From Xanthostigma xanthostigma (taxonomy: Eukaryota > Arthropoda > Insecta > Raphidioptera > Raphidiidae), in contig OY754465.1 of the NCBI GenBank assembly GCA_963575645.1, positions 35,165,501-35,229,500 on the forward strand: a stretch of 64,000 nt of DNA, written 5' to 3'. Shown here in pieces: positions 47,161 through 62,201 of this stretch (the stretch's first letter is position 1; the number at the start of each line of letters is the position of its first letter). A program made the position numbers and the translations under genes. Under the pieces are notes generated by a model. That model was not told the origin of the DNA, made no database searches, and saw only the letters and a list, made by a program, of their open reading frames with translations.

Positions 47161-47660
47161 TTATTGAGCTTCTTCTGCTTCTTCATTTCTACTTCCATAA
47201 TTATCTTCTTCTCCTTCTTTTTCCTCTGCATCCTCCTGAGTCGATGTAAATTGTTGTAGCAGCGATACATCATCTGTTTCGTCGTTGATGTTGGTATCTT
47301 CTTCTGTTGAAAGTTCGACGTTTGAACACGACTGGCCTTGACAACTGATGCATGTTGTTGAACAAAATAAGCCCACTTTTTTGCAGCTGCATTTTGAACT
47401 ACACCCCTTCTTACAATTGCAAAAAATGGTGTTAAGGAGCTTCTCTGGTGCAGGCGGAAGTAGAGTATGGATTGGCTCCAGTACATTGTCAATTAGCTTC
47501 CAACCCCATTCTTCTGGATCCAGTGCATTGCCAAGCCACACTTGAAGCTGGTAATACACTCGATAGAAATGTTGCTGAGCAGAAGCTGAAGTTGGAGGAA
47601 GACAATCTAATTGCACACGTTTTTTATTACGATTTTGTTCTGTACACTTTTTTCAAATAC
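47161..47660 (-). CDS. C-terminal part of an element-encoded Cys-rich (CXC-like) protein
   Basis: The reverse-strand frame opens after a stop near 47660 and runs to TTATTG at 47161. KCTEQNRNKKRVQLDCLPPT is followed by FYRVYYQLQVWLGN, LDPEEWGWKL and PPAPEKLL, then a Cys cluster (CNCKKGC, CSCKK, GLFCSTTC, CQGQSC). Counted from the VQLDCLPPT valine, these are Cys 66, 68, 72, 76, 78, 85, 89, 92 and 97. The spacing resembles tesmin/TSO1 CXC zinc-binding motifs. An acidic Glu/Asp tail ends it. I recall similar WLGN-LDP-EWGW plus CXC ends on uncharacterised insect proteins. No complete start is present, so this is the 3' remnant of a longer gene. Confidence 0.55.
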
Positions 47661-58032: not shown

Positions 58033-58510
58033 CATATCGACACCTTTCACTTGCACTTGGTTTTGTTTGTAGGTACGTGTGCTGTGTTTAATCTATTGCG
58101 TAATGTTTCACTTATAGAGCGGCGGGAGCTGCTTCACAACTTAGTTATGGTTATACTTATAAATAGAAAAGTTAAGAACCGTAACAAATCACTTACATGT
58201 GTTTACCGTGTGATAATACCTAATTATTTATAATATACTGTTCTTTATTCTGCCGCGCATTCGTCTGTCGGCCTTGGAACAGAAGGATTATCGTTGCTAA
58301 TTAGTACACTAAGACCCCGGTTATACGACGGACTGCAGACCACCCCCTAAAAGTGAAAAATATAGTTTTTTTACCGGCGTGACGTTGCCATCAACTGAGG
58401 GCGATCAATTAATGGCGCCGATGAAATGAGGTCGTCTCACGTATTTAAATTTGATAATTTTGAACAGTGATGTGATTTCTCATATATAAACCAAATTTTA
58501 CGTTCTTATA
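58033..58510. other. intergenic spacer
   Basis: No feature recognised between the hAT remnant and the next element. Confidence 0.4.
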
Positions 58511-58841
58511 TCTGTGGCTTAGTTCACTAAGGTCCGAAGTCACAAATTTAAAACTTTACAGGAGAGCTAAATTACCGATTTTTGACCTTTTGAGATCATT
58601 TTTTAGTGGTACCATTAGTTTAAAAAAAAATAAATAAAAATAAATTAGAAAGATCTTTATTAATTTAATAAGCTAACATAAATATTTTCGACCTTATTAT
58701 ACCAGCAATTAAAAAAAAAAATATTAATGGACAACAGTCTTCTGTGAATATATTTTTAATTGAATCATGTTAGACGGGTGTCCATTTTTTTATAACAAAA
58801 TAACTGAAATTTATTCTTAAACAGCGGTCAAGAACGTTCAT

Positions 58842-58847
58842 TTTATT
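58842..58847 (-). other. AATAAA directly after the transposase stop codon
   Basis: The reverse strand reads AATAAA at once after the TAA at 58848-58850. It is a possible poly(A) signal giving a very short 3' UTR. Confidence 0.4.
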
Positions 58848-61027
58848 TTAAAATATTTCTTCTTCACTTTCTTCCTGACGATTGTAGGATAAATTAATAA
58901 AAAATTGCTTACAATCGTCAGGAATCCATGGTAATAACGACATTAAATCGTTATACTTCAATCGATTTATAGGTTTCAATTGGTTTGAAACGGCAGGCAG
59001 CTCATCAGGCAAGATTAGTTGTTTTCGAATATGACGTATTAAATTGACTTCCTTAAAATCCGTATCCTCGAAACTGGTTTTATATCTTAACATACCGACG
59101 TAACCTGATATACATTGTAAATGAACAATTTTGGAAATTTGATAGTTTTCAGATAAAGTATTCCTTTTTCGGTTAACAAAAGGAGAGTTACTGTTAGATC
59201 CTAAAACATTAATATTTAAAAAATCTTCTATGTTCATCTCGTGTACAATCAGAGGATTTCTTTCGCTTACCATGCGAATCATTTGCGCCCAGTCATGGGT
59301 TGTACAAATTTGCATGGTTTTCAGAAATTTTCTTTTCCTTTCTGTAATAGAGTGGATTACATCCACTTCCATGTGAGTATGCCCCTTAAGCAAATATTTA
59401 TGATTAATTGTGTGAATGTGGGGAAATTTGTGTAGTGCCCACATGTACATAAAAATCAAATTGATATTTCTGTTTTGTCCAGAGCAATTATCTGACCAAA
59501 TAGTAATTTCATGTACGTCGTTTGGCAATGTTGAAATCCACTTTAAAAGACAAGATGAAATTTCAATGCTTCCTCTGCCAGACATTGCTTCATTCCATAT
59601 CATGCAATGTGATTGATTGGTAGTCATATCACATATTGTTAAATTTAGTGTCCACAATTTTCGCAAATAGAAGGACTTAGCGTTGGTTAAACAAGGCGTT
59701 GGCAAACATTTCTGTAAATCCACTGTAACAACCCTTTCATTGGAGTTTGGTAGCTTTGATCGCATCTTATCCTCTTTTTTTAATTGATATCTTTTAGCCG
59801 ATTCATCGTGATGTTTGTTTTTTTCATCGATGTAAATTGTTTTTTCTAAATCGTTAGTAGAATCGTTTATCAGTCGCTCAAATCGATCACATTCATCACA
59901 GGTATCAAGTTTAGGTAATTTGAAACTATAATTGAATTGTGTATTAAAAATATTTCGGTAAAAAGATACCTTTGCTACATCGTTTTTTTCAACTCCTTTT
60001 TCTCTACAGTATTCTAAATACATGGAATACATAGTATTTATATTGAGGCCTGGTTCCAAATACTTTCTGGCAGATGAAGCCCTGCAGTAATGGCTCTCAA
60101 TGACAGGGAATTTTAAAATATGATCCCTAACCGTTTGGATACATACTTCCGACTTTTTGTTTGTAGGATAATGCCTTTGTCTTTTATCAGGTGTGGTAAT
60201 TAAGTTTCGGGAACCGTTTTCATTTACAACGTGCTTTATAGAATTTCTCACAAATTTTTCGGTAACACTTAAAGTGTTAAGGTACATTTTTTTGCATACA
60301 GCAGTGTTTTCGCCGATCTTAAAATTCAATGAGTAACTGTATGAAAACTGCCTTCTATTGTTTTGATTGTTATTTCTAGGCCGTTTTCGCGCAATCGTGT
60401 TGACTTTTACAGAAGAACGAACAAATTGTTTTCGTTGGTCCCAACTTAACGTAGACCAGAACTTTTTATGTATTTCTTTTCTTTCATCTGCACTTATTTT
60501 TTCTGCACAATTTAATACCTTACAATTGCATGGGTCTTTCATTTCTCTTTTTTTAACAATTTTCCCCCCTCTGCCTACATATTCCTCTCCTTTTAATCGT
60601 TTTTCTTTCGGTACATTCTTAGCCCAATTTTTAGAATCTCGTTTTCTTTTTCGTGTTTTTGTTTTAATGTTGGACTTTTCTTCGCTTAAATCAATTCTAT
60701 TTTCTGTATTATTATTACTTTTAGATGAGTTATTACTGTTCACATCGAAATCTTTATTTAAATTTCTAATTACATTTTTACGCGTCAATATAAAACTGTT
60801 TTCGCTACCGGAACTGTCTATGTCTGAAGGTTTGTAGTTTGGGTCGAGATCACTGACAGGACTATATGGTTCAAAATCAGAAAGCTGTTCACAATTCAAA
60901 TTTTTTTCACTATCGTTTAAAATTTCATTGGCGTCGACACCAAGACTTTCCAAATCTTGAATAATATTATTTTGATCTTCATTCAATTGCGATGTTTCAG
61001 AAGAACAATCAATATTAGATTCAAATC
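58848..61027 (-). CDS. exon 2 of putative DDE-type transposase (residues 32-757)
   Basis: The open frame runs unbroken to TAA at 58848. The acceptor GTTATAG|GA at 61028/61027 joins exon 1 in phase (Gly32), giving 757 residues. Order: acidic Ser/Asn-rich N-terminus; basic KTKTRKRKR (likely nuclear signal); CNCKVLNC (Cys198, 200, 205) with DERKEIHKKFW; CDEC (Cys408, 411); VDLQKCLPTP (Asp468); TIWSDNCSGQNRN (Asp544); LLKGHTHMEVDVIHS (Glu585); acidic end EESEEEIF. D-x75-D-x40-E and the surrounding hydrophobic strands suggest an RNase H-fold DDE enzyme. I recall similar DLQ-x-LPTP / SDN-x-x-QN / GHTHME proteins as uncharacterised, multi-copy insect genes. The TIRs around it support a transposase; the activity itself is inferred. 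Confidence 0.8.
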
Positions 61028-61217
61028 CTATAACAACGATATTAAAAATATAAACAGTGAATTTGAATTCCAATTGTAGCTAAATTACTAACATTATAAT
61101 CTACTACGAATTGCTTAAAATTTGTCTATTTGTACCTATATTATTCAATAATACTCGCTATTTCTAGCACCATGTTTCTTTATTTAAAATAGAAATTATA
61201 AATTACAATATACATAC

Positions 61218-61311
61218 CATTTTCCTGTTCGATATCATCAGCGGTTTCGGCAGTTATTTCAGCAAAAGAATCTCGCACTTTTTGCATAATTAATTTCGCT
61301 CTGAATGACAT
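61218..61311 (-). CDS. exon 1 of putative DDE-type transposase (residues 1-31)
   Basis: ATG at 61311-61309, then MSFRAKLIMQKVRDSFAEIT and AETADDIEQEN. Donor GAAAATG|GTATGT at 61218/61217 leaves one base, completed by GA of exon 2. The 190-base intron is typical in size for insects. Without this exon the long frame would start within intron sequence (MEFKFTVYIFNIVVI), an unlikely hydrophobic start, so the spliced start is preferred. Confidence 0.75.
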
Positions 61312-61487
61312 AATTAATTGTTATAGACAGATACCTACACACGGCACAAACGTTTTAAATAATGAAATTGCTCCTCTGTTGTCCGTTACCACGAGGTAAA
61401 TAATATAAAGCCGTTAAACATAACCTCAAGAAACAAATCACAGAAGGCGGAAGTCCAAACATTTAGTTTTATATGCTGTATTTTTTA

Positions 61488-61568
61488 TTCACTAAAGGCG
61501 AAAATGGACAACCGCCATTCGTTATAAACGCAAGCTAAAGACGGTTGTCCTTGAGCGTCTTTAGTGAA
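61488..61568. repeat. 81-bp subterminal hairpin repeating the TIR word
   Basis: TTCACTAAAGGCG, then GGACAACCG, is followed by CGGTTGTCC and CGTCTTTAGTGAA in mirror order. The outer word TTCACTAA is the same as in the element's TIRs. It lies between the right TIR and the gene's start. It could be a transposase-binding site or a small nested element. Confidence 0.75.
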
Positions 61569-61774
61569 ATAACAGGAGGTGTACTACCGCCCATGTAGAA
61601 TTTTGTATTTTCGGTAAAATTGATTTCTAAACATTCGGCGTAAGTCCATTTAATAGCAAATTTTTCACTGATAGATAATCTACAATAAAGTGATTTTAAA
61701 AAAAAAATGGACTTCGGCCCTTAGTGAATTGACACACAGATATTCTATATAGCCTTCCACTTAATCGCTAACGA

Positions 61775-62201
61775 AAATAGATAGTAATAATAATGCGTTT
61801 AACGTCCGTTTCTTGACTTTATGTCATAACAAACGCCATTCGCACCATTACTATTTTCCATCTATCACACTTCCCGTTATTTTCTACATTTTTCAACTTC
61901 AACTAATTGATTGCAACAGGCGAATGAAGGAATTTTAGGACATTAGGATAAGGTAGGCAAATTTTGAGCATAGGAGTTTGACAGGTAATAATCGGCCATG
62001 GCCTTGAATAAGGATATTTATCTCTAATTATTGAGGGAAACCATGGAAAACCTCACAAGATGGCCGGTACAGAAATTACCGTTTTTCGGCAAGAGACACC
62101 AGGAAAAAGTCCCAGCCGGATCTGCCCCCGCCGGGATTTCCCACCCGATACCTCCAGAATACGAATCTAGTGCTCTCACCACTACGCCACCCCGCTCGGT
62201 C
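61775..62201 (-). mobile_element. tRNA-derived SINE with a likely 9-bp TSD
   Basis: Read on the reverse strand, the head is GAGCGGGGTGGCGTAGTGGT onward, with box A TGGCGTAGTGG and a degenerate box B near GGTATCGGGTGGGAAATCCC. The body follows (TTTTTCCTGGTGTCTCTTGC, GAGGTTTTCCATGGTTTCCC). CGCTAACGA flanks both sides (61766-61774 and 62202-62210). The body wording is typical of a SINE family common in insects. Confidence 0.7.

What the first reader, a model, noticed from the sequence alone, without database searches (positions are those of the whole stretch)
58511..61740. Candidate new DNA transposon: intact 757-residue DDE-like gene inside imperfect TIRs
An uninterrupted two-exon gene sits between 31-bp TIRs matching at 26 positions. 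Its DLQ-LPTP / SDN-QN / GHTHME motifs give a D-x75-D-x40-E layout, with separate CxC-x4-C and CxxC motifs. I know such proteins only as uncharacterised multi-copy insect genes. Tying one to transposon ends would give the family a function. The open frame and clean splice sites suggest recent activity.
Basis: partly seen in the sequence, partly recalled or inferred. Interest (0 to 1): 0.85.

Follow-up and report, generated by a model that had tools for sequence, protein, structure and literature searches.

The report
Recently active Sola2-like DNA transposon
This stretch is a complete, recently mobile "jumping gene" that carries its own probable transposase, most likely of the known Sola group, and it suggests that a protein family still catalogued as of unknown function (DUF7869) is the enzyme that moves such elements.

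Summary
A 3,228-bp element (58512-61739) has 30-bp imperfect inverted ends, a two-exon 757-aa gene on the minus strand and a 4-bp target duplication (ATAT). It is a real DNA transposon: the end pattern (up to 2 mismatches) occurs eight times in the 623-Mb genome, pairing into four copies on four contigs. Two other copies also encode an intact 757-aa protein. The C8 copy sits in a high-copy repeat; two uninterrupted repeat copies read base by base carry a single AAAT, which shows insertion and duplication directly. The protein's only Pfam match is DUF7869. Six more DUF7869 end-families in this genome have inverted ends; 22 of 24 insertions have perfect 4-bp duplications, 19 of them AWWT. Published Sola2 elements share this duplication, and Sola transposases are DDD. 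Best reading: a new family of a known kind, Sola2-like. No Sola transposase was available for comparison and the structure models were uninformative, so Sola membership and the RNase H fold remain inferred.

The parts
58512..61739 (.). Whole transposon, 3,228 bp (window copy of family F1)
   Evidence: Same boundaries in all four genome copies; the 30 bp of flank printed differ between copies
58508..58511 (.). Left target-site duplication ATAT
61740..61743 (.). Right target-site duplication ATAT
58512..58541 (+). Left terminal inverted repeat CTGTGGCTTAGTTCACTAAGGTCCGAAGTC
61710..61739 (-). Right terminal inverted repeat
61488..61497 (+). Subterminal copy of the TIR core TTCACTAARG (putative transposase-binding site)
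   Evidence: 4 matches in the 64-kb window, all inside the element; 0.36 expected
61559..61568 (-). Second subterminal copy of the TIR core, opposite orientation
61218..61311 (-). Exon 1 of the transposase gene (starts MSFRAK)
   Evidence: similar starts in L030, L034, L037, L062 of 15 loci scanned
61028..61217 (-). 190-bp intron, GT..AG (predicted)
58848..61027 (-). Exon 2 of the transposase gene, to the stop codon
59253..59552 (-). DUF7869 (PF25273) match
   Evidence: E = 6.2e-9, residues 508-607 of the 741-aa ORF
59718..59720 (-). D468, first conserved acid
   Evidence: D in 25 of 25 aligned proteins
59490..59492 (-). D544, second conserved acid
   Evidence: D in 25 of 25
59361..59363 (-).
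   Evidence: D in 24 of 25; E585 is E in 11 of 25
59889..59900 (-). CxxC (C408, C411), possible zinc site with H437
   Evidence: C408 and C411 in 24 of 25 (1 gap), H437 in 25 of 25

Best explanation
An autonomous cut-and-paste DNA transposon of the Sola superfamily, Sola2-like group. It encodes one large protein, a DUF7869 transposase. Inferred mechanism: the transposase binds the inverted ends and the subterminal TTCACTAARG copies, uses a D468-D544-D587 metal site to cut the element out, and inserts it at AT-rich 4-bp targets, mostly AWWT, with a 4-bp stagger. Host repair fills the gaps and leaves the 4-bp duplication. Shown: the ends, the copies, the 4-bp duplication, the empty sites, the intact gene and its conservation. 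Inferred: that DUF7869 is the catalytic transposase, which residues are catalytic, binding to the subterminal repeats, the RNase H fold and the Sola assignment.
For: Four copies on C1, C2, C5 and C8, each with both ends: the end pattern (up to 2 mismatches) gives 4 forward and 4 reverse hits in 623 Mb, control 0. Window versus C1: 7 differences in 3,230; versus C8: 39. Three copies encode an intact 757-aa protein. Window versus C8 coding: 11 synonymous changes over 438.5 sites, 10 non-synonymous over 1,832.5 (Fisher p = 0.0007), so the protein was under selection. Empty sites: the joined flanks of the C8 copy match 40 of 40 scored places (334 first-look candidates) as one piece (38 span 1-400, 2 span 2-400), and the two read base by base have a single AAAT. 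For family F2 (L020) two of the scored places match at 100% over 400 bases with a single AATT. Perfect 4-bp duplications: 22 of 24 distinct insertions with both ends, in 7 end-families (23, the C5 copy): ATAT 7, AATT 7, AAAT 3, ATTT 2, TTAT, ACTT, AAGT one each. Pfam: DUF7869 in 25 of 25 aligned proteins (window plus 24 relatives), no known DDE transposase family at E <= 0.1. Published Sola2: 4-bp AWWT duplications (ATAT, AAAT, ATTT) and TIRs of 12-21 bp (PMC3627910, passages). Sola: DDD transposase, 4-bp duplications, most 2-9 kb, TIRs 11-1124 bp (PMC10741241, passage).
Against: No Sola transposase sequence was available for a direct comparison. Both structure models were low-confidence, and the Foldseek search had no match at E <= 0.001 and no RNase H fold named among the 50 listed of 446. 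Two of 24 insertions (L022, L028) have unequal flanks, and three of 22 duplications are not AWWT. Five of the 24 (L025, L037, L046, L052, L053) came from a scan that required equal 4-mers; without them the count is 17 of 19. L030 lies in an AT repeat, so its ATAT says little. In that scan 16 of 37 loci gave no pair of ends and 5 gave only pairs at 17 of 24, the level of shuffled loci; some of these stretches may be too short to hold both ends, but ends were not shown for those copies, the closest relative L013 among them. E594 is also well conserved (21 of 25) and could be the third acid.
Confidence: 0.78

Rival explanations
1. The DUF7869 elements form their own, still unnamed transposon superfamily that shares a 4-bp AT-rich target with Sola2 by convergence.
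For: No sequence link to a named Sola transposase was made. No Pfam DDE transposase family matches at E <= 0.1 and no solved structure matches by sequence at E <= 10. DUF7869 appears in 0 papers of the library.
Against: Length and sequence of the target duplication, DDD pattern, size and TIR length fit published Sola/Sola2 descriptions.
Confidence: 0.17
2. The element is moved by another element's transposase and the DUF7869 gene is a passenger.
For: Catalytic activity is not demonstrated; the fold is unresolved.
Against: Seven end-families with different termini each enclose a DUF7869 coding stretch. In the window element the only other ORF of 150 aa or more is a 156-aa frame antisense to the gene. 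The gene shows selection between copies.
Confidence: 0.03
3. A host gene family in segmental duplications, with chance inverted ends.
For: L031 and L032 are one insertion inside a duplicated segment of C11, so segmental duplication does occur here.
Against: Different flanks in the 30 bp printed, exact ends, target duplications and empty sites.
Confidence: 0.01

Closest known systems
Sola2 DNA transposons (e.g. Dictyostelium fasciculatum DFa-1 to -3 and Polysphondylium pallidum PPa-1, -4, -5; PMC3627910, passages)
   Same: 4-bp AWWT target duplications (ATAT, AAAT, ATTT), short TIRs, one large transposase
   Different: 757 aa here versus an 888-aa transposase in DFa-2; those elements carry Fanzor1, which I did not look for here; direct sequence relation not tested
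Sola superfamily in general (PMC10741241, passage)
   Same: DDD-type conserved acids, 4-bp duplications, size within 2-9 kb, TIR length within 11-1124 bp
   Different: Nothing tested differs; Sola1 and Sola3 were not compared
piggyBac (TTAA target, PMC5199201 passage) and Kolobok (TTAA, recalled)
   Same: 4-bp duplication, one transposase
   Different: None of the 22 duplications is TTAA; no DDE_Tnp_1_7 match at E <= 0.1
Pfam PF25273 DUF7869
   Same: Every one of 25 aligned proteins matches
   Different: Pfam gives it no function; here it is the coding content of a mobile element

Membership tests
Sola2 | 4-bp AT-rich (AWWT) target-site duplication | tested here: met
   22 of 24 insertions with equal 4-mers, 19 AWWT; window copy ATAT. 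Definition from PMC3627910 passages
Sola2 | Transposase similar in sequence to known Sola2 transposases | not testable with these tools
   I found no Sola reference sequence; the 2009 Sola paper is not held; no look-ups in supplements are allowed
Sola | DDD catalytic residues | tested here: inconclusive
   D468 25/25, D544 25/25, D587 24/25 conserved, but no structure shows that they meet
Sola | Mostly 2-9 kb long, TIRs of 11-1124 bp | tested here: met
   3,228 bp, 30-bp TIR; the six other end-families 2.4-4.3 kb
piggyBac | TTAA target duplication and DDE_Tnp_1_7 domain | tested here: not met
   No TTAA among 22 duplications; no such domain at E <= 0.1 in 25 proteins
Tc1/mariner | TA target duplication (PMC5199201 passage) | tested here: not met
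   Empty sites show a 4-bp duplication, AAAT in F1 and AATT in F2
DUF7869 (PF25273) | Match above Pfam's curated cut-off | tested here: met
   36.1 bits against a cut-off of 26

The most novel reading that the evidence does not exclude
DUF7869 defines an unclassified superfamily of DNA transposons with a DDD transposase and AWWT targets, distinct from Sola, abundant in this genome and until now hidden among 'uncharacterised' genes.
Probability: 0.17. Interest if true: 0.6.

Novelty: new member of a known kind. Interest (0 to 1): 0.36.

Why it matters
It points to a concrete function, transposase, for a Pfam domain of unknown function. If confirmed, annotators could take such 'uncharacterised' genes out of host gene sets. 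It also supplies a recently mobile element with defined ends, target and empty sites, ready for a transposition assay.

Tried and rejected
A 2-bp duplication with ends TCTGTG..CACAGA fitted the F1 copies alone; rejected because F2 copy L023 is flanked by TTAT and its right-hand base is not A. Viral contigs (1 and 7 stretches matched a pattern, none confirmed) and prokaryote genomes (45 stretches, none confirmed). PDB by sequence: none at E <= 10. Structure prediction from the single sequence, two jobs: pLDDT 34.6 and 40.5, not usable; the fold search on the second gave no match at E <= 0.001 and is not interpreted. A propensity-based secondary-structure sketch has an order of strands and helices compatible with RNase H but is too weak to count. 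A first end pattern was mistyped and matched nothing; corrected. One search compared the C1 copy without reversing it; corrected. Paper searches for Sola/DUF7869 links; passages of PMC5753468, PMC10294476 and PMC4455052 gave no Sola reference sequence or Sola target sequence.

Full report
What is in the window. Lines 58301-61980 were read directly. The minus strand holds one long frame, 58848-61073 (741 aa). With a short first exon it gives a 757-aa protein: exon 1 61311-61218, a 190-bp GT..AG intron, exon 2 61027-58848. The first 15 residues of the 741-aa frame, and part of the codon of the 16th, are intron sequence. A similar exon-1 start occurs in 4 of the 15 related loci scanned, L030, L034, L037 and L062. 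The inverted ends match at 26 of 31 positions; of one million position pairs around the ends four reach 26 and none exceeds it.

It is a mobile element. A DNA search of the whole genome (623 Mb, 28 contigs, unnamed; I did not establish the species) gives 13 matching places: full-length copies on C2 (the window), C1 and C8, a copy on C5 in two pieces, and eight shorter or diverged pieces on C10 and C4. The C1 copy differs from the window at 7 of 3,230 bases and the C8 copy at 39. The C5 copy shows 11 differences in the two pieces compared, has in-frame stops and is split by a 2,209-bp insert. The 30-base end pattern, with up to two mismatches, is found four times forward and four times reverse in the genome, making four complete elements; the control pattern gives none. 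No short non-autonomous copies with these ends were seen at that stringency.

Target duplication. Flanks of the F1 copies are ATAT (C2, C1, C5) and AAAT (C8). F1 alone would also fit a 2-bp duplication. A second family, F2, decides for four bases: its duplications are ATAT, AATT, AAAT and TTAT. Empty sites prove it. The C8 copy lies in a high-copy repeat. Its joined flanks, with one AAAT, match all 40 scored places (334 first-look candidates) as one piece (38 over 1-400, two over 2-400). The two of these read base by base, L069 and L070, have a single AAAT at the junction. For F2 copy L020 the best two places are 100% identical over 400 bases with a single AATT.

Other families. A protein search gave 61 matches (60 of 712 candidates scored), and the Pfam domain search 150 places (150 of 363 candidates scored), all above Pfam's cut-off. 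Both are lower bounds. From loci already held, ends were defined for seven end-families. F1, F2 and F3 were defined by aligning copies, the others by a scan for inverted ends with equal flanking 4-mers over 37 loci. In that scan 16 of 37 loci gave nothing and 5 gave only pairs at 17 of 24; of 17 loci with base-shuffled flanks, 15 gave nothing and two reached 17 and 18. The best pairs for L003 and L020 belonged to other elements around them. So ends are shown for part of the DUF7869 copies, not for all. Of 24 distinct insertions with both ends, 22 have perfect 4-bp duplications: ATAT 7, AATT 7, AAAT 3, ATTT 2, TTAT 1, ACTT 1, AAGT 1 (23 insertions, the C5 copy). L022 and L028 do not. L033 could not be judged because its locus ends at the border, and L031 and L032 are one insertion in a duplicated segment and count once. 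L030 lies in an AT repeat, so its ATAT is weak evidence. Five of the 24 (L025, L037, L046, L052, L053) came from the scan that demands equal 4-mers; without them the count is 17 of 19.

The protein. The only Pfam match at E <= 1 is DUF7869 (E = 6.2e-9). Twenty-five proteins were aligned: the window's and 24 with long stop-free frames from the 60 loci listed; a few rows are near-identical pairs (L026/L029, L030/L034, L055/L061). All 25 match DUF7869, and no known DDE transposase family appears at E <= 0.1; weak hits in one or two members to 13 other families, among them the DNA-binding domain THAP at 0.057, are treated as noise. Column counts (757-aa numbering): D468 25/25, D544 25/25, D587 24/25 (one N), E594 21/25 (2 D), E585 only 11/25 (plus 3 D). 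C408 and C411 (24/25, one gap) with H437 (25/25) could hold zinc. Between the window and C8 copies there are 11 synonymous changes over 438.5 sites and 10 non-synonymous over 1,832.5, a difference with Fisher p = 0.0007, as expected for a protein kept functional between jumps.

Possible binding sites. The TIR core TTCACTAARG occurs four times in the 64-kb window, all inside the element: once in each TIR and twice just inside the right end in opposite orientations (0.36 expected). I read these as likely transposase-binding sites; this is inference.

What was not shown. Only window sequence was sent to structure prediction, without an alignment; the models (pLDDT 34.6; 40.5) are not usable. A Foldseek search with the second gave no match at E <= 0.001, and none of the 50 titles listed (of 446 matches) names an RNase H fold, a transposase or an integrase.

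What it is. Published Sola2 elements in slime moulds have 12-21 bp TIRs and 4-bp AWWT duplications (ATAT, AAAT, ATTT) (PMC3627910, passages). A review states that Sola transposons encode a DDD transposase, have 4-bp duplications, are mostly 2-9 kb long and have TIRs of 11-1124 bp (PMC10741241, passage). The element here fits those of these features that could be tested; the DDD site is supported by conservation only. The original Sola paper is not held. I recall, from no call, that it describes three groups with different termini and targets. The direct test, sequence similarity to a Sola transposase, could not be made. I therefore call it Sola2-like with moderate confidence and leave about one in six for a separate superfamily. 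The word DUF7869 is in none of the 5.39 million papers of the library, so the link from this Pfam entry to transposon ends was not found in print there; Repbase itself was not searched.

Verdict. The transposon is real, recently mobile and well delimited. Its kind is most likely already known. The useful new point is that DUF7869 is the coding content, and most likely the transposase, of AWWT-target elements.

Noticed in passing
G000 contig C10, about 8.7-18.8 Mb: 97 of 150 scored DUF7869 places (counted by hand) and 79 of 119 scored piggyBac-domain matches (by hand) lie on C10, which is 40.9 of 623 Mb; all but 3 and all but 8 of these fall in this block. It looks like a transposon-accumulating region (perhaps a non-recombining sex-linked block, pericentromere or large piRNA cluster; not tested).
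   Followed up: partly
L005/L004, G000:C5:52031762-52033970: The C5 copy of the element is split by a 2,209-bp insert without a frame over 90 aa, with inverted ends (AGATAAACGTATTATACTTAGGAAGAT) and a short flanking repeat (query positions 437-446 occur on both sides): probably a non-autonomous DNA transposon of another family.
   Followed up: partly
L003 (C8 copy), flanks: The C8 copy sits inside a high-copy repeat with 23/24 inverted ends flanked by TTAA, so it is probably nested in another TTAA-target transposon.
   Followed up: partly
L020, flanks: F2 copy L020 lies inside a pair of 24/24 inverted ends (CTTCTCACACGGAGC), and the interrupted reading frame looks like a MADF-domain protein (recognised by eye, not tested).
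   Followed up: no
window 47161-47616 (-): A 151-aa cysteine-rich ORF (CNCKKGCSSKCSCKK) of a type I recall as multi-copy in insect genomes; no Pfam match at E <= 0.01.
   Followed up: partly
L031 and L032, G000:C11:8.28 and 8.57 Mb: Two 4.8-kb stretches 290 kb apart are 99.96% identical over their whole length, flanks included: a recent segmental duplication or an assembly duplicate.
   Followed up: no
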